Source: Armatimonadota bacterium
Lineage (GTDB): Bacteria > Armatimonadota > Armatimonadia > Armatimonadales > Capsulimonadaceae
Reading direction: 5' to 3'
NCBI GenBank assembly: GCA_025353925.1
Contig: JANXNV010000031.1
Location: 1 to 34,827, forward strand
Length of the DNA stretch: 34,827 bases
The notes beneath the pieces were generated by a model that saw only the letters and a program-made list of their open reading frames with translations, was not told the DNA's origin and made no database searches. Within the stretch, counting starts at the first letter, position 1. Each line of letters starts with the position of its first letter. Shown piece after piece: positions 9,502-28,321 of this stretch. The position numbers and the translations under genes were made by a program.

Positions 9502-9532
9502 GAAGCCGAGTGGTTGAAAACCACTCGGCTTC
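9502..9532. terminator. bidirectional terminator between mscL and the GH30 gene
   Basis: A 13-14 bp perfect stem (GAAGCCGAGTGGTT / AACCACTCGGCTTC) with a GAAA-type loop. Its right end overlaps the stop codon of the minus-strand GH30 gene by two bases. U-tracts are poor on both sides. Confidence 0.6.
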
Positions 9533-11321
9533 ATCTCGCTTGCACCATGCGCCAGTGCTGGCTGGACGCCCCATTCACCGCTTGCTGCGTCAGCCTCCCT
9601 GCGGCATCCGCGCTCAAAGCCAGCCCGCTGTTTTCATTCACAAAAACAAACTCGCCGTTCTGCGCTGGGATGGCGTGCCAAATCTGATTTGCCCCGTCGT
9701 TAAAGCCGTATTCGATGACCTCCGCTCCCGGGGTCTTCAATGCTGTGGTGACATCGAGAACCTGGCCGGTGGCCCGTCCGGCGATCTTGTAGCGGTCGTT
9801 TCCGAGGCCGAGCAAAGCCCACTGCCGGTTTGCACCGTGGCTGAGCGGCAGGCTGGAGCCGGCATTTGTGAGCTGGTAAAAGCTACGGTAGCCGAATCCT
9901 GACTTGCTGCTGAACACGGCCCCGGCGATGACATACGAAGTCACGCTTTTTGGGGGAAGGGCCACGCTCAGGGTTTTACCTGTGAGCCGAACTGCGGGCA
10001 GCTTTGTCCAATTCTCAGTCGGAGAAGTACGCGTTCCGGCCGCCGTTACTCCGACATGGGCGAACCGCGAGAGATCAAAGCTCGCCTGCCGGGGTGTGTC
10101 GTCGCTGTTAGTGACAATTAGTACGAGCGATTTGGTGTGCGGGTCATAAGCCGTAAGTGTATTCGGGTCATCGTTTGCAATGATCACAGTGCCAGGCCGG
10201 ACAAAACGGCTGTATTGGCCCAGGACGTAGTATTTCCCGTTGACACCGTACGCTGTCGTGGTTTCGTCCTTCTCCGGGTTGGTCAGCAGGCCCCATCCGC
10301 CGCCGTCGACAGCCTGCCAGTAGACCCAGGCGGACGGGTGAAGGCCCTTCACATCGGTTAAAATCTGCCGGGACATTTCCAGGCCGCTGGCATCCCCATC
10401 CCCGTACTCAGACATCCACAGAGCTTTTCCCGCCGCGCTCGCGAGGGTGAAAAGCTGGGTACGGTCTCCTCCGCCGTAGGTATGCACATTGATCTTCGAA
10501 AGCCCCTTTAACGCCGTGGCGTCATAGTGGCCGAATGTAGCAATGGCCGAAACAACCGAAGTCTCATCGGAGGCGGTCGTCGATGTCACGGTGACACCCG
10601 CGCGTCTCAGCGAGGCGGCGGTCTCTTTGACCAGTTGGTTCTGGTGGGGCGGCGTGACGACGCAGCCTTCCTGACCGTTAAATGCGCCCCCATAGGCCCA
10701 GCCGTTGGTCGGCTCATTCAGCGGAACGAGAGACTGGAACGTGATCCCCCACGACGTCTGAAAATGTTTGGCGACTGTCGCCAGATAATCTGCAAACTGC
10801 TTGTCGGCATCCGGGCGCAGGTTGTCGGCTCCGCCATGCCCGCCGGTGACGCTGCCGCTGACGGTCGCCCACCAAGGCGGCGAGTTGGAGAACGCTTCCA
10901 GCTGGTCCGCCCCGTGCTTGATCGCTTCGGTCAAGACCCAGCGCTGGGCGGAGTCGGCAGTCCAGTTCCAAACGCCGGGCGAGGTCTCGTAGCCGGGAAT
11001 GTCGGCGCGAAACGCCATAAACGATTTGTGCGGCGGATCGGGATGCGGGTTTTCACCGCCGCCGATATTGTAACGAACGACATTCAGCCCAAGTCCGTTG
11101 GTTGGGCTAAAAACTTTCTCCATGTAGTCGCTGCGAGCCGGCTCGGGAAACCCGCCGACCACTTTCGCCCACCAGGCCAGAGAGGTTCCCCAGCCTTGCC
11201 ATTTCCCATACTCGATCGTGGGGTCCACGGTGATGGCGGCCCCCGCCTGAGCCCCCGGGGCGGCCAGTAAGTTGAAAAGCATAACCGCGGCGGCTCCGCT
11301 AACTAAAAAACTTAAGTTCAT
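9531..11321 (-). CDS. secreted GH30-family glycoside hydrolase with C-terminal ricin-type lectin domain
   Basis: A 596-residue exported enzyme with signal peptide (AAVMLFNLLAAPGAQA). The first about 460 residues match the GH30 (beta/alpha)8 barrel plus beta-sandwich. GWGTSLAWWA near residue 43 and GLNVVRYNIGGG near 78 are typical of the endo-beta-1,6-galactanase-like branch (GH30_5). The likely acid/base glutamate is E203 in PLNEPTNGW and the likely nucleophile is E305 in MSEYGDG. From about residue 465 a ricin-B-like beta-trefoil follows, with QxW-type repeats (NRQWALLG, NQIWHA, SQHWRMV). The predicted role is extracellular degradation of galactan-type plant or microbial polysaccharide, with the lectin anchoring the enzyme to sugar. 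The start has CAGGAG upstream. Substrate specificity is inference. Confidence 0.9.
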   Translation of the reverse strand: MNLSFLVSGAAAVMLFNLLAAPGAQAGAAITVDPTIEYGKWQGWGTSLAWWAKVVGGFPEPARSDYMEKVFSPTNGLGLNVVRYNIGGGENPHPDPPHKSFMAFRADIPGYETSPGVWNWTADSAQRWVLTEAIKHGADQLEAFSNSPPWWATVSGSVTGGHGGADNLRPDADKQFADYLATVAKHFQTSWGITFQSLVPLNEPTNGWAYGGAFNGQEGCVVTPPHQNQLVKETAASLRRAGVTVTSTTASDETSVVSAIATFGHYDATALKGLSKINVHTYGGGDRTQLFTLASAAGKALWMSEYGDGDASGLEMSRQILTDVKGLHPSAWVYWQAVDGGGWGLLTNPEKDETTTAYGVNGKYYVLGQYSRFVRPGTVIIANDDPNTLTAYDPHTKSLVLIVTNSDDTPRQASFDLSRFAHVGVTAAGTRTSPTENWTKLPAVRLTGKTLSVALPPKSVTSYVIAGAVFSSKSGFGYRSFYQLTNAGSSLPLSHGANRQWALLGLGNDRYKIAGRATGQVLDVTTALKTPGAEVIEYGFNDGANQIWHAIPAQNGEFVFVNENSGLALSADAAGRLTQQAVNGASSQHWRMVQAR

Positions 11322-11455: not shown

Positions 11456-12223
11456 ATGACTATGAAATACCAACGCACTCTGGGCCTTACCGCCGGACTT
11501 CTGGCTCTCGGGATCAGCACCCCGTCCCCCGCCGCTCCGGGGAAGCCGACACCCGTGATTGTAGAATTGTTCACGTCGGAAGGCTGCTCCAGCTGCCCGC
11601 CCGCCGATACGGTGCTGTCCGGTCTGACCCGGCAGCCGATTGCCGGAGTGGAGGTGATTGCCCTCGGCGAACATGTAGACTACTGGAACCACGGCGGCTG
11701 GGCGGATTCGTTTTCGTCCGCGAAGTTTAGCGGGCGTCAGAGCGACTACTCACAGACATTCGGCAAAGACACTGTTTACACGCCGCAGATGATCGTGGAC
11801 GGAAAGACGCAGTTCGTCGGCAGCGATGAAGACCTCGCTCGAAAAGCAATCTCAGCGGCGGCCCACACGCCGAAGGCCAATGTTAATCTCGCGCAGTCCG
11901 GGCCGCAGTCGCTGACCGTCCGCGTGGATCATCTTCCGGTCTCCGTGCAGAATGATCCGGCAGACATTCTTCTCGCCGTGACCGAAGACGGGCTTGCCTC
12001 GTCAGTCGGCGGCGGCGAGAATTCGGGGCGGCATCTGGTGCATAGCGCGGTGGTGCGGAGCCTTCAAGTTTTGGGGAGGACTTCCGGCGGCGTCTTTACC
12101 GCGACTCCTACCGTGACGCGAACCGCAGGCTGGAAGCGCGGGCGCTTGCATGCGATCATATTCGTGCAGGAGCATCGCAGCCGCCGGATCGTCGGCGCGG
12201 CAGAAGTGGGTCTAGCCGGGTAA
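11456..12223 (+). CDS. secreted DUF1223-family thioredoxin-fold protein
   Basis: A 255-residue exported protein. After the signal peptide (LGLTAGLLALGISTPSPA) comes PVIVELFTSEGCSSCPPAD, the hallmark of the DUF1223 family with a thioredoxin-like CxxC. Further family motifs follow (HVDYWNHGGWADSFSS, FSGRQSDYSQTFGKDTVYTPQMIVDG). Family function is not established; a periplasmic redox or metal role is a guess from the CSSC motif. Two close ATGs (11456 and 11462) compete. The second is better spaced from the weak purine-rich AAAAGAGAAA site, so the true start may be two residues shorter. The gene diverges from the GH30 gene. Confidence 0.9.
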   Translation: MTMKYQRTLGLTAGLLALGISTPSPAAPGKPTPVIVELFTSEGCSSCPPADTVLSGLTRQPIAGVEVIALGEHVDYWNHGGWADSFSSAKFSGRQSDYSQTFGKDTVYTPQMIVDGKTQFVGSDEDLARKAISAAAHTPKANVNLAQSGPQSLTVRVDHLPVSVQNDPADILLAVTEDGLASSVGGGENSGRHLVHSAVVRSLQVLGRTSGGVFTATPTVTRTAGWKRGRLHAIIFVQEHRSRRIVGAAEVGLAG

Positions 12224-12370
12224 CACGCCTCAACAGGTTTATTATTCGGTCCCCGACCGATATTTGTTTCGCGCTGCCCTTTCTTATGGGTAGGAATAAA
12301 TGCGCACTGCGGGCAAACATACCGGCAATAATACACCTGCAGGAAGCAGGCCAAGAAGAGGAGAAATCGG

Positions 12371-12577
12371 ATGAAATTACGCGGACTTGCGGCGGCGATC
12401 GCCCTCCTGACACTCGCCTCGGGCACGACTGCCTTTGCGGCCAGCCCGATGATGCATCATAAGATGATGCACGGCAAAATGATGCATGGCAAAATGATGC
12501 ACCATCGCATGATGCACCATCGCATGATGCACCGCCATATGATGATGCATCACAAAATGATGATGCACAAAATGTAA
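12371..12577 (+). CDS. small secreted Met/His-rich protein, likely metal-binding
   Basis: A 68-residue protein. A signal peptide (RGLAAAIALLTLASGTTAFAA) is followed by a mature part of about 44 residues built almost entirely from MMHHK/MMHGK/MMHHR units, so methionine and histidine dominate with lysine, arginine and glycine spacers. Such composition is seen in periplasmic copper- or nickel-handling peptides, so metal binding is a reasonable inference, but no established family is recognised. The start has AGAGGAG about nine bases upstream and a strong terminator follows, which together support a real gene. The next gene encodes a b-type cytochrome. Confidence 0.85.
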   Translation: MKLRGLAAAIALLTLASGTTAFAASPMMHHKMMHGKMMHGKMMHHRMMHHRMMHRHMMMHHKMMMHKM

Positions 12578-12589
12578 ACAGCTCGGCAA

Positions 12590-12637
12590 ACGGCAGTCGG
12601 GCAGCCGCAGAGGCTACGCCCGGCTGCCGTTTTTTTG
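12590..12637 (+). terminator. rho-independent terminator after the Met/His-rich gene
   Basis: A 12 bp stem with one G-T wobble (ACGGCAGTCGGG / CCCGGCTGCCGT), probably extended by an inner stem, followed by seven T. Confidence 0.9.
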
Positions 12638-12679
12638 ACTTGATTTCTTCGGATTTTTCGTGACACGAGGCTTCGAATT

Positions 12680-13495
12680 ATGGCAACACTGACACTCAAC
12701 GCACCCGCAGCGACGCAGACGGTTGCTCGTAAGCATCACTGGCTGGTGCGGGTCACGCACTGGCTGAATGTTCCGATCCTGCTGGGGCTGACCCTCAGCG
12801 GCCTTTCCATCTACTGGGCCGCTCCGGTGTATACCCATGCGGCGGATGCCAACGGCAACGTCGACTACCTCAATGACATTGGCCTCTGGGTCGCACGTCA
12901 TGAACCCTGGCGGCACTCCTATGGTGCCCCGGAGACCTGGCTGCCGGGGACACATTACAACGCCCGCTGGGTCTATGACCATTTCAGCCTCGGTACGGGC
13001 ATGCTCTCAACCGCGCTGAACCTGCACTGGCTCTTTGCCTACCTATTTCTTGCGAACGGGCTGCTTTATTTGATCGGTCTGGGAGTCGGCGGGGGATACA
13101 AGGCCCTGCTGCCGCGCCGTGACGATCTCAAAGATGCGTTTATCATGCAGCGGTATTACTTAGGTATGCCGTTTGCGAAGCTCCTGCGCAAGCCCTGGAA
13201 CCACCCAAAGATCACTACCAAATACAACGCTTTGCAGCGGCTGGCGTATTTCGCGATGCCGGTCGCCGGAACCGTCGCCGTGCTGACAGGCTGGGCGATC
13301 CACAAACCGGCCCAGCTCGGCTGGCTGCAAGCCCTCTTCGGCGGCTACGATTACGCCCGCCTCTGGCATTTCGGTTTGCTTTGGCTCTTCGCGTTGTTTG
13401 TTGTCCCGCACGTCATCCTGGTCCTGGCCGACGGCTGGGACACCATGCGCTCTATGGTCGCGGGGTGGACGGAGCGGGGGGCGTCGGACTTGTGA
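12680..13495 (+). CDS. cytochrome b561-type membrane protein (di-heme b)
   Basis: A 271-residue membrane protein with about four or five transmembrane helices. Probable heme-b ligands are the histidines in VRVTHWLN (helix 1), LHWLFAYLFL and HFGLLWLFALFVVPHV. It resembles the b561/hydrogenase and thiosulfate-reductase b-subunit group, which passes quinol electrons to a membrane-attached oxidoreductase. Between helices 1 and 2 is a long loop (about 70 residues) outside the membrane. No catalytic partner subunit (for example a molybdopterin enzyme) is adjacent, so it is an orphan here. The ATG is preceded by ACGAGG. The 3' end overlaps the convergent hypothetical gene by 44 bases. Confidence 0.85.
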   Translation: MATLTLNAPAATQTVARKHHWLVRVTHWLNVPILLGLTLSGLSIYWAAPVYTHAADANGNVDYLNDIGLWVARHEPWRHSYGAPETWLPGTHYNARWVYDHFSLGTGMLSTALNLHWLFAYLFLANGLLYLIGLGVGGGYKALLPRRDDLKDAFIMQRYYLGMPFAKLLRKPWNHPKITTKYNALQRLAYFAMPVAGTVAVLTGWAIHKPAQLGWLQALFGGYDYARLWHFGLLWLFALFVVPHVILVLADGWDTMRSMVAGWTERGASDL

Positions 13496-14174: not shown

Positions 14175-16250
14175 CTAAGGGTGAAGTGGAAAAAACTGAA
14201 CTTCCTTGATATTCTTTGTTTCATCCGTATCGAGATACTGAAACTGACCGCTGGTGAGAAGGGTGCTTCCGACAGGTACCGAAGGAACAGTTACAAGAAG
14301 AGCAGAGACGGAAGCCGTCGTATTTCGAGTGTAGCAAAGGGGATAACAGAGGCTCTTTGAATCATCGACACTACCGTCGCTCTTGACGACAGAATTATCC
14401 TGCCACTGCGGGGCATTGCAGCTGGTTCCATCCAGGTCATTTTTTACGATATGCGAACCTGCTCCGCTAAACGAAAGCTGTTTTAGTTTCAAGTCCACCA
14501 CGACGACCTTGACTGTGCTACCTTGGTCAGCCGCCGCAGTACCCGAAGTGGCGATGACGGCTTTAATCCCCGTCTCGCCCTGATCTTGCAGGCCGGTGAC
14601 GTTTGCGCCGACTTCCACCAGCATAGGCTTGTAGGCACCTGCGTTGACAACGGAGTTGCCGCGCAGCGTTACCGTTTTGCAGTTGGAAAGAGAAACCGGG
14701 GATTTTTTGTCCATCATCGCCGGCCACGGAGCGGCTCCGGTGAGGGTGTTGCCGGAGAGGGTGACGCCCTCGGCCCATTCGATCTGCAAATCGCCCTGGA
14801 GATTAGAAGAGAAGTGGTTGTCTTTGATGACGATGTTTTTGTTCCCCATCGCCCCGTCCCCGTGGATCAAAATCGCGGCACCGCCGTAAGTCGCGCCGCC
14901 GTTTCCGCGCAGGGTGTTTCCGGCAAGGGTGACGTTCTGGACGTAGTCCGCTTCATTCCAGTAGTACTCGGGGCCCAAGCTGATCGCCGCCATGCCGCAG
15001 TCTTCAATAACGTTGTTTTGTACCACAGCGTGGTCGCACTTCAATAATATGCCTCGGGAGCGCGTATTGCCCAGGCGGCAGCCGATGATCTTTGTGCCTG
15101 CGCCGTCCGCTTGCGGATTGCTGAGCTTTGCGCCGATGGGCACTCCCAAGTCTTTGTCCAGCGTGACTGTGCTCGTTTGATCGCCGTTGTCCTTCAAAGC
15201 AGTGACGACCGCTTCCCCGAAAAAGCCTTTGGTGTCTGAGAGTCGAGCCGGTTCACCGACTTTCAGGTTCGCTGAGCCATTTTTGACGATCAGTACGGCT
15301 CCATTGACGCTTTGTATCGTTTGGAACGACCCGTGAACGGCGAGGCAGTCATCGAGCAAAATTCCCTGAAAGACACAGTTTTCGATGTCCGGGCCGGGGT
15401 TTGCGCCGGTGGAGTGCAGGCCGTCGGCGGCATTGGTGACCAGCGGGTTTTCCGTCGCACCCCCAGGTCGCGGGCCTAATGCCCAGATGTCATGCAGAAA
15501 ATGGTTGCCGCCGCCACCGTCTTCGCGGATATTGGAGAAACCGTTCCGCATCATAGTGACGTCTTGAATCGTGCAGTCTCGGCAATTGTCTAGGGAGACT
15601 TTGAACGGGGCATCGCCGTACCGGCCCACCAGCCAGTCCCCTGGCCCAAAGTGCAGCGTTTTCTGATTAAAGCTCAGACGATAGCTGCCATCCCCCAAAT
15701 CTTCCAGCGGCAGATCATAAAAGTCCCCGTTGCCGATTTTGAGTCGGCGGGTGCGGGAGTCCACGACGTTTGCGGCACCGGGAAACTTTTTCGTGCCGAC
15801 CGGGAGGGCCGGATAGCTGGCATCGGGCTTCCAGTCGCAGGTCGCGCTGCCATTCGGGCTTATACCGACAGCGACGACGCGGCCTTGGTACGAAGTGATC
15901 TTATTCTGGGAGAGTGTTCCTCCCAGTACCATCACCTGCGAACAGCGATCCAGCTCAAATAAGTTGTGTCCCCAGGTTAGGTCCGTTAAGATCAGGGTCG
16001 CTCCGTAGAGGCTGATGGTCGCACCGCTCCAGCCTTTCAAGTTGAATTGCGAGTGACCGACATTCGGCAGGAGGTAGACGCCGGGTTTGATCACGATCCG
16101 CCGCGCCCCGCCAACATAAGCCGCCTGAACTGCCGATGCCAGCCGTTCCGGTGTTTTTGGATTGCCGACAGTGACCGCGGGAGTAGCGGCGAAGGCGATT
16201 TGTGTGAGCAGCAGAAGCGGCAGAAAACAAAAACTCCGGGATATTCTCAT
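14175..16250 (-). CDS. secreted right-handed parallel beta-helix protein
   Basis: A 691-residue exported protein with signal peptide (SFCFLPLLLLTQIAFAA). The N-terminal part (ASAVQAAYVGGARRIVIKPGVYLLP) is the usual opening of pectate-lyase-fold proteins. Further on are many short beta-helix rungs (VQNNVIEDCG, VTLAGNTLRGNG, IVIKDNHFSSN, VTLSGNTLTGA). A central segment NAADGLHSTGANPGPDIENCVFQG...DDCLAVHG is asparagine- and aspartate-rich, as in polysaccharide-active beta-helix enzymes. It most likely binds, cleaves or trims a glycan outside the cell, but no catalytic set can be assigned to a named family. The ATG at 16250 has only a weak CAGG upstream. It diverges from the PEP-CTERM gene at 16410. 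Confidence 0.85.
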   Translation of the reverse strand: MRISRSFCFLPLLLLTQIAFAATPAVTVGNPKTPERLASAVQAAYVGGARRIVIKPGVYLLPNVGHSQFNLKGWSGATISLYGATLILTDLTWGHNLFELDRCSQVMVLGGTLSQNKITSYQGRVVAVGISPNGSATCDWKPDASYPALPVGTKKFPGAANVVDSRTRRLKIGNGDFYDLPLEDLGDGSYRLSFNQKTLHFGPGDWLVGRYGDAPFKVSLDNCRDCTIQDVTMMRNGFSNIREDGGGGNHFLHDIWALGPRPGGATENPLVTNAADGLHSTGANPGPDIENCVFQGILLDDCLAVHGSFQTIQSVNGAVLIVKNGSANLKVGEPARLSDTKGFFGEAVVTALKDNGDQTSTVTLDKDLGVPIGAKLSNPQADGAGTKIIGCRLGNTRSRGILLKCDHAVVQNNVIEDCGMAAISLGPEYYWNEADYVQNVTLAGNTLRGNGGATYGGAAILIHGDGAMGNKNIVIKDNHFSSNLQGDLQIEWAEGVTLSGNTLTGAAPWPAMMDKKSPVSLSNCKTVTLRGNSVVNAGAYKPMLVEVGANVTGLQDQGETGIKAVIATSGTAAADQGSTVKVVVVDLKLKQLSFSGAGSHIVKNDLDGTSCNAPQWQDNSVVKSDGSVDDSKSLCYPLCYTRNTTASVSALLVTVPSVPVGSTLLTSGQFQYLDTDETKNIKEVQFFPLHP

Positions 16251-27018: not shown

Positions 27019-27555
27019 ATGGCATCCGTAGAGTCAGACATGTCAAGCACCGCCGCCGTCATTCACCAAAGCGAACCTGTCCGTCAGACTTGCACGGTGA
27101 TTGCGGCGGTGCTTTCGTTTGTTGGGGCGGGAATCGCGGGGACTCTCTGGTGGACGGAGAAAACGCGTCAGGATGTGCCGTGCAGCGCGGACGGCGGCTG
27201 TGCGATCGTAGCGGCAAGCAAATGGTCTCATGTCGATCTGATCTTTTGGCACGATGTTCCGGTCGCACTGCTAGGCCTTCTTGGTTACATCTTTCTGCTC
27301 AGCATCGCCATGCTGCGCCTTGGGTGGGAGAATGAGGCGGTTCAGCGTCGTCTGCACGGCCTGACCTGGCTGACGACCGCCACCGGGACAGCGTACTCGT
27401 GGTACCTGCAGTGGATCGCCCATTTCGAGATCGGGGCGTACTGCCCCTGGTGCCGGGCTTCGGCGATCACGATGACGGTTTTATTTCTGACGGTGACAGC
27501 GGAGTGGCTAGCACAAAAACGCCGCAGAAACGGGAGAGTGCCGGCGCATGAGTAA
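27019..27555 (+). CDS. vitamin K epoxide reductase (VKOR) family protein
   Basis: A 178-residue membrane protein with about four or five hydrophobic helices. It carries both cysteine pairs of the VKOR fold: Cys55 and Cys61 in the outer loop (VPCSADGGCAIV...SKWS) and the active CxxC Cys142/Cys145 in YCPWC, next to the quinone site. Bacterial VKOR reoxidises a DsbA-like partner and passes electrons to quinone, replacing DsbB. The start at 27019 (GAG upstream) is two bases after the previous stop; an alternative ATG at 27040 is possible. It overlaps the DsbA-like gene by 8 bases, so the two are translationally coupled. Confidence 0.93.
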   Translation: MASVESDMSSTAAVIHQSEPVRQTCTVIAAVLSFVGAGIAGTLWWTEKTRQDVPCSADGGCAIVAASKWSHVDLIFWHDVPVALLGLLGYIFLLSIAMLRLGWENEAVQRRLHGLTWLTTATGTAYSWYLQWIAHFEIGAYCPWCRASAITMTVLFLTVTAEWLAQKRRRNGRVPAHE

Positions 27556-28321
27556 CGGGACTGGGAAAAAGATTGCCCTGCTGGCGGTTTTTCTGGCAAT
27601 GATGATCGGGCTGGGTGTGTGGATCACCAAGTTCAATCCGGAAAGTGGCAGCTCGAATGCGACCGCGCGAAAGCTGCAGCCCGCTCCGAAGCTGGATACG
27701 GTTAAGCTGGCAGGGCAGTGGCCACAGATCGTCGCGCATGCGGCGGCTCCGGCCCGGGGCCGTGCGGCAGCCCGGTACACGATCGCCGAGTTCGGCGATT
27801 TTCAGTGCCCGCAGTGCGGCAAAGTCCGGCCGCTTCTGGAGACTCTGCTGCAGAAATACCCAGACGAAGTTAATCTGCTTTTTATTCATCGCCCCTTCCC
27901 GCAGCTGCATCAGTGGGCCATCCCTGCCGGGAAAGCTTCGGAGATCGCCGCTGTGCAGGGCAAGTTCTGGCCGATGTACGACCAGCTTTACGGTCATCAG
28001 GACAATCTGGAGCCGGGCTATTACAGCGAGTATGCGGCGCAGGTGGGATTAGATAAAGCGGGCTTTCAGAAAGCGTTCGATACGGGCGCGGGCGCAGATA
28101 AAGTCAAGGCGGCAAGCGCATTCTCCGATGCGGTCGGTGTTCAGGAAACGCCGACCCTTCTGCTCCGAGACAATAAAAAGAACACGGTTACGATCTATCT
28201 TGGAATCGACGGGACCAAAAATGCAGATGGTACGCTTCAGTACCCCGGCGTCAAAGAATTAGTCGCGCGGCCTCCTTGGACTCAAGCCGTTGCGGCGTCA
28301 CTTCCTCCGTCACCACGGTGA
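27548..28321 (+). CDS. DsbA-like thioredoxin-fold protein
   Basis: A 257-residue protein. An N-terminal membrane anchor or signal (IALLAVFLAMMIGLGVWI) is followed by a DsbA/Thioredoxin_4-type domain. The redox CxxC is Cys87-Cys90 in FGDFQCPQCGKV, and the cis-proline loop is QETPTLLL. It would introduce disulfides into exported proteins and be recycled by the VKOR just upstream. GGGAGAG lies about ten bases before the ATG. The last 23 codons (tail PPWTQAVAASLPPSPR) overlap the convergent transglutaminase-like gene by 71 bases. Confidence 0.93.
   Translation: MSNGTGKKIALLAVFLAMMIGLGVWITKFNPESGSSNATARKLQPAPKLDTVKLAGQWPQIVAHAAAPARGRAAARYTIAEFGDFQCPQCGKVRPLLETLLQKYPDEVNLLFIHRPFPQLHQWAIPAGKASEIAAVQGKFWPMYDQLYGHQDNLEPGYYSEYAAQVGLDKAGFQKAFDTGAGADKVKAASAFSDAVGVQETPTLLLRDNKKNTVTIYLGIDGTKNADGTLQYPGVKELVARPPWTQAVAASLPPSPR

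What the first reader, a model, noticed from the sequence alone, without database searches (positions are those of the whole stretch)
12371..12577. Micro-protein almost entirely of Met, His and Lys after its signal peptide
The mature 44 residues are a simple MMHHK/MMHGK repeat. This is a striking metal-ligand density, and the gene has a good ribosome-binding site and terminator. The adjacent gene encodes a b-type cytochrome, so a copper or heme-related role is possible. I do not recognise it as an established family.
Basis: partly seen in the sequence, partly recalled or inferred. Interest (0 to 1): 0.5.

Follow-up and report, generated by a model that had tools for sequence, protein, structure and literature searches.

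The report
Met/His-rich antioxidant peptide beside cytochrome
This small secreted protein, made almost only of methionine, histidine and lysine/arginine, is most likely an Armatimonadota version of a known bacterial "methionine sponge" that mops up bleach-like oxidants outside the inner membrane and is recharged by a methionine-sulfoxide repair enzyme fed by the neighbouring cytochrome.

Summary
The gene is real. The 68-aa ORF at 12371-12577 has a signal peptide and a 45-residue mature chain (19 Met, 13 His, 5 Lys, 3 Arg). It has a strong ribosome-binding site and a terminator that is conserved, with the gene and the adjacent cytochrome, in the only same-genus genome searched. It is the only such gene found in its 4.03-Mb Armatimonadota genome and lies 103 bp from the genome's only copy of this cytochrome b.

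Across 119 loci from many phyla, relatives of that cytochrome nearly always (110) lie beside a molybdopterin oxidoreductase whose best curated match is MsrP. Thirteen loci also carry a secreted Met-rich repeat protein, and 11 carry the upstream gene's family, DUF1223. Annotated proteobacterial plasmids show the same module with a "pentapeptide MXKDX repeat protein", ECF sigma/anti-sigma and MsrAB. This is the MrpX (Azospira) / BcrX (Brucella) hypochlorite-sink system. In the window's family the MsrP-like gene is present but unlinked.

It is best read as a His-rich, highly basic variant of the MrpX kind that fails the TIGR02953 model. Metal binding, alone or combined, is not excluded. The DUF1223 link was not found in the papers searched.

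The parts
12371..12577 (+). CDS of the Met/His-rich peptide, 68 aa
   Evidence: ORF; orthologue in G001
12371..12439 (+). Signal peptide, 23 codons, AFA|A cleavage motif
   Evidence: Read from sequence: basic start, hydrophobic core, A-X-A; well kept in G001. No signal-peptide program was available
12440..12574 (+). Mature chain, 45 aa: 19 Met, 13 His, 5 Lys, 3 Arg, in MMHHK/MMHGK-like units
   Evidence: Composition; degenerate 15-bp array 12449-12574
12357..12363 (+). Ribosome-binding site AGAGGAG, 7 nt before the ATG
   Evidence: Sequence; region partly kept in G001
12590..12636 (+). Intrinsic terminator: GC hairpin then T7
   Evidence: Fold and G001 conservation
12238..12292 (+). Three short blocks kept upstream in G001 (TTTATTATT, TATTTGTTTC, TATGGGTA); possible promoter
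   Evidence: Alignment of two species only; no promoter assigned
12680..13495 (+). Cytochrome b (PF01292), 271 aa, proposed electron donor to the MsrP-like enzyme
   Evidence: Pfam E=2.8e-11; invariant H27, H116, H230, H244 in 16 homologues; beside an MsrP-like gene in 110 of 119 loci
11456..12223 (+). DUF1223 protein, exported by inspection, CxxC motif (CSSC); accessory member of the module
   Evidence: Pfam E=3.1e-59; PDB 2axo E=8.4e-26; within 3 kb of the cytochrome in 11 of 119 loci

Best explanation
The gene encodes a secreted Met/His-rich peptide that acts as a sacrificial, rechargeable methionine sink for hypochlorite-like or other oxidants outside the inner membrane (MrpX-like). Steps: (1) a Sec-type signal exports it (inferred from sequence). 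(2) Its 19 Met side chains, and possibly its His, react with oxidant and become methionine sulfoxide (inferred from the known system). (3) An MsrP-like molybdopterin oxidoreductase, encoded elsewhere in this genome, reduces the sulfoxides (gene shown, activity inferred). (4) The adjacent cytochrome b passes quinol electrons to that enzyme (inferred from pairing and invariant His). (5) The DUF1223 thioredoxin-fold protein is an accessory redox protein (association shown, role unknown). (6) An ECF sigma factor probably controls the module (association shown in sister genomes, inferred here).
For: Cytochrome relatives sit beside PF00174 enzymes in 110 of 119 loci; best NCBIfam match of all five enzymes tested is MsrP. 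Secreted Met-rich proteins lie within 3 kb in 13 loci, against 0 in 400 kb of control DNA. Family enzymes, though unlinked, are closest to the partners of this cytochrome subtype (24 of 24) and present in all of G000-G004. ECF sigma next to the Met-rich gene and DUF1223 in G002; its relatives next to the cytochrome in G003 and G004. Annotated plasmids show the same module with MXKDX proteins, ECF sigma and MsrAB. Brucella and Azospira work shows the function.
Against: No MsrP-like gene beside this cytochrome; no Met-rich gene beside the cytochrome in G002-G004. The peptide fails TIGR02953 and has 29% His and no acidic residue. No expression data. One G002 paralogue and one G025 relative look metal-linked.
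Confidence: 0.62

Rival explanations
1. It is a periplasmic metal buffer (Cu(I), Ag(I), Ni or Cu(II)) working like SilE or Met-rich copper proteins: Met and His clusters bind soft metals, and the cytochrome neighbour is incidental.
For: Dense Met and His motifs; in G001 His exceeds Met. A G002 paralogue lies near FeoA, FeoB, a cation efflux protein and DsbD_2. A G025 relative carries a CPVCHM...CCSKC segment between its repeats.
Against: No metal-resistance genes recognised nearby; the module partners are redox-repair genes; family members at other module loci can lack His altogether (L092). No match to any SilE, Cus or Pco model above cut-off.
Confidence: 0.15
2. Both: a metal-holding Met/His peptide whose methionines are kept reduced by the MsrP-like enzyme, as MsrP does for the copper chaperone CusF in E. 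coli (PMC9302797, abstract).
For: Context favours methionine repair and composition favours metal; a link of MsrP and copper stress is published.
Against: No direct metal evidence for this gene or its neighbours.
Confidence: 0.17
3. A low-complexity ORF without function.
For: Simple repeat; no third-position bias in the first 26 codons between the two species.
Against: ORF, leader, RBS region and terminator kept in G001; like proteins recur at the same module in other phyla and are absent from 400 kb of control DNA.
Confidence: 0.05

Closest known systems
MrpX with YedY1/YedZ and SigF/NrsF of Azospira suillum (Melnyk 2015, not held; read through PMC8315932, PMC5748585, PMC4623255)
   Same: Small exported Met-rich peptide tied to a cytochrome b and an MsrP-like molybdoenzyme, with an ECF sigma in relatives
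   Different: His-rich, no acidic residues, molybdoenzyme gene unlinked in this genome, DUF1223 next door; function untested here
BcrX of the bcrXQP operon, Brucella melitensis (PMC8315932)
   Same: Met-rich MXKDX repeat protein with MsrQP-like partners, HOCl-induced there
   Different: Operon intact in Brucella and split here; composition differs
TIGR02953 pentapeptide MXKDX repeat proteins (Caballeronia, Kozakia, Methylobacterium plasmids)
   Same: Same gene neighbourhood; Caballeronia SBC2 has the same peptide-cytochrome order
   Different: They pass the model, the window protein gives no match
SilE and other Met/His-rich periplasmic metal-binding proteins
   Same: Small, exported, dense Met/His motifs
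   Different: No family match, no sil, cus or pco genes recognised nearby

Membership tests
TIGR02953 pentapeptide MXKDX repeat protein | Score above the curated cut-off (41 bits) | tested here: not met
   No match at E<=10, while three annotated members score 44-58 bits
TIGR02953 pentapeptide MXKDX repeat protein | Repeated M-x-K-D-x units | tested here: not met
   Units are MMHHK/MMHGK with no Asp; bridging protein L015 has both kinds and scores 21.5 bits
MrpX / BcrX methionine-sink module | Small exported protein dominated by Met | tested here: met
   42% Met in the mature chain, signal peptide by inspection
MrpX / BcrX methionine-sink module | Gene next to the cytochrome b partner | tested here: met
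   103 bp apart in the window, 102 bp in G001
MrpX / BcrX methionine-sink module | MsrP-like enzyme in the same operon | tested here: not met
   Not in the window; a matching enzyme lies on other contigs
MrpX / BcrX methionine-sink module | ECF sigma / anti-sigma control | tested here: inconclusive
   Related sigma and zinc-finger-like gene on contig C152; adjacent to module genes only in G002, G003, G004
MrpX / BcrX methionine-sink module | Scavenges hypochlorite and is recycled | not testable with these tools
   Needs oxidation and MsrP assays
SilE-type metal-binding protein | Sequence match to the family | tested here: not met
   No Pfam, NCBIfam or PDB match
SilE-type metal-binding protein | Measured metal binding | not testable with these tools
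   Needs ITC, NMR or MS

The most novel reading that the evidence does not exclude
A His-loaded methionine sponge that couples periplasmic copper handling to methionine-sulfoxide repair: metal held by Met/His is protected and recharged by a cytochrome b / MsrP-like pair, with a DUF1223 thioredoxin-fold protein as a so far unrecognised redox partner of the MrpX module.
Probability: 0.15. Interest if true: 0.65.

Novelty: new variant of a known kind. Interest (0 to 1): 0.4.

Why it matters
It extends the rechargeable methionine-sink defence, studied in a few Proteobacteria, to Armatimonadota, with a His-rich peptide that the standard model misses, and gives a testable role to an unannotated micro-protein. 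The recurrent link of DUF1223 to the module (11 of 119 loci, several phyla) gives a widespread family of unknown function a concrete hypothesis: redox work in periplasmic methionine-sulfoxide repair.

Tried and rejected
A motif search for further MMH repeats in the own genome gave the window gene and scattered single matches; the one followed up (L022) lies inside a larger gene in another frame. The relative hit in G010 (L006) lies in a 547-aa open frame and was dropped. L131's Met-rich ORF is antisense inside the cytochrome gene and was dropped from the count. No solved structure matches the peptide. Melnyk 2015 is not held. A literature search combining small Met/His-rich periplasmic copper proteins with MsrP found nothing. 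Rejected: low-complexity artefact; heme-delivery role (no supporting gene). The genome's second Oxidored_molyb gene (C139) is not the likely partner: about 30% identity to any module enzyme. No structure was predicted: the peptide is too simple for a useful model, and DUF1223 already has a solved relative.

Full report
OBSERVATION. The ORF at 12371-12577 (+) is as described: a 23-residue signal peptide by inspection, then 45 residues with 19 Met, 13 His, 5 Lys and 3 Arg. AGAGGAG lies 7 nt before the ATG. A long hairpin followed by T7 lies downstream (12590-12636; the 12578-12640 stretch folds at -36.7 kcal/mol). The repeat is a degenerate 15-bp array with mixed His and Lys codons. The same-genus genome G001 has the gene (61% identity over the alignment), with leader, RBS region, hairpin and neighbouring cytochrome kept. 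G001's contig has the same length (19,299) as JANXMY010000031.1, an Armatimonadetes bacterium, so the window comes from Armatimonadota.

NEIGHBOURS. Upstream is DUF1223 (PF06764, E=3.1e-59), related in sequence to PDB 2axo, a thioredoxin-fold protein according to PMC3091736. Downstream is a cytochrome b of PF01292 with four invariant His across 16 homologues. I recognised no metal operon in the window.

WHAT THE CYTOCHROME MEANS. A search of the own genome with this cytochrome finds one copy; relatives occur in 48 of 291 genomes of the phylum. I read the neighbourhoods of 119 loci: Armatimonadota genomes plus named genomes of Acidobacteria, Eisenbacteria, Bacteroidetes, Planctomycetes and others. 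In 110 a molybdopterin oxidoreductase (PF00174-type) lies within 3 kb. Its best NCBIfam match is MsrP in all five proteins tested, always below the equivalog cut-off, and the best PDB match of the G001 enzyme is 1xdq, which I know as E. coli YedY, now MsrP. Thirteen loci, after dropping one antisense artefact, have a secreted Met-rich repeat protein within 3 kb; 400 kb of other Armatimonadota DNA gave none. Eleven have DUF1223 within 3 kb. Pedobacter and Mucilaginibacter loci (L149, L178, L179) have all four genes together. These counts include related species and a few records of the same organism may appear twice, so they are not independent events. The control DNA is from Armatimonadota only.

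THE SPLIT OPERON. In the window's family the molybdoenzyme is not beside the cytochrome. Every one of G000-G004 nevertheless has an enzyme 66-89% identical to (or, in G000, identical with) the query copy; in the single-contig genome G002 it lies about 30 kb from the cytochrome. Family enzymes score higher against all 24 enzymes paired with this cytochrome subtype than against any paired with the other subtype. In G000 the gene is cut by contig ends: C157 and C65 each hold part. In G002 the Met-rich gene, an ECF sigma gene and DUF1223 lie in a row on one strand. Close relatives of that sigma lie beside the cytochrome in G003 and G004, and on contig C152 in G000, followed by a zinc-finger-like gene. 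So most pairs of the proposed module are linked in at least one related genome.

KNOWN COUNTERPARTS. Annotated plasmids show cytochrome b, molybdopterin oxidoreductase and 'pentapeptide MXKDX repeat protein' together with an ECF sigma, an NrsF or DUF1109 protein in three of four, and MsrA/MsrB in Kozakia and Methylobacterium. In Brucella bcrXQP is induced by HOCl and contributes to resistance, and BcrX is called homologous to the Azospira sacrificial peptide (PMC8315932). Azospira papers describe mrpX, yedYZ, sigF and nrsF as a periplasmic methionine-cycling system. In Burkholderia cenocepacia an exported protein, a cytochrome b561 and an oxidoreductase in a row rise with NaOCl and H2O2 (PMC2830190); I did not confirm that this exported protein is Met-rich.

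MEMBERSHIP. The window peptide fails TIGR02953, so I do not file it there. It works like MrpX on context and composition. A bridging sequence exists: L015's protein contains MMHGK repeats, sits at the module and matches TIGR02953 weakly. E-values between such low-complexity proteins are unreliable, so the argument rests on gene context, not on peptide similarity.

THE METAL RIVAL. His content in this genus is high, and in G001 exceeds Met. One G002 paralogue lies near iron and cation transport genes and DsbD_2, and a G025 relative fuses the repeat to a Cys-rich segment. MsrP is also studied in copper stress with the chaperone CusF in E. coli (PMC9302797, abstract only). Metal binding, alone or combined with the sink, keeps about a third of my belief.

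VERDICT. A real gene, best explained as a His-rich variant of a known kind. Moderately interesting; the DUF1223 link and the split operon are the new elements. The literature search behind the word 'new' covers only the held open-access library, where two papers mention DUF1223, and the one I read (PMC3091736) treats its fold, not this module.

Noticed in passing
L149, L156, L161, L178, L179, L181, L182, L186, L194, L135 and window 11456-12223: DUF1223 recurs within 3 kb of the cytochrome b / MsrP-like pair in several phyla; a possible new redox partner of the module.
   Followed up: partly
L013 5965-6408 (G025): A secreted protein with MMHGK repeats flanking a CPVCHM...CCSKC segment, resembling a metal-binding YHS-like domain; Pfam gives only a weak DUF7351 match.
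   Followed up: partly
L012 7575-7928 (G002): A second Met-rich secreted protein, next to a DsbD_2 membrane protein and near FeoA, FeoB and a cation efflux gene; suggests some paralogues serve metal handling.
   Followed up: partly
window 14175-16250 (-) and L009 7942-8403: The beta-helix protein gene next to the cytochrome appears much shortened in G001, where DUF1223 is also missing from the whole genome search.
   Followed up: partly
window 27019-28321 (+): Two adjacent genes that look like a VKOR-type membrane protein and a DsbA-like thioredoxin, a likely periplasmic disulfide pathway; read by eye only.
   Followed up: no
window 9531-11321 (-): Glycoside hydrolase family 30 protein with a ricin-type lectin domain.
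   Followed up: no
window 12377-12589 (-): A 70-aa antisense ORF rich in His, Met and Val overlaps the gene; a mechanical by-product of the repeat.
   Followed up: no
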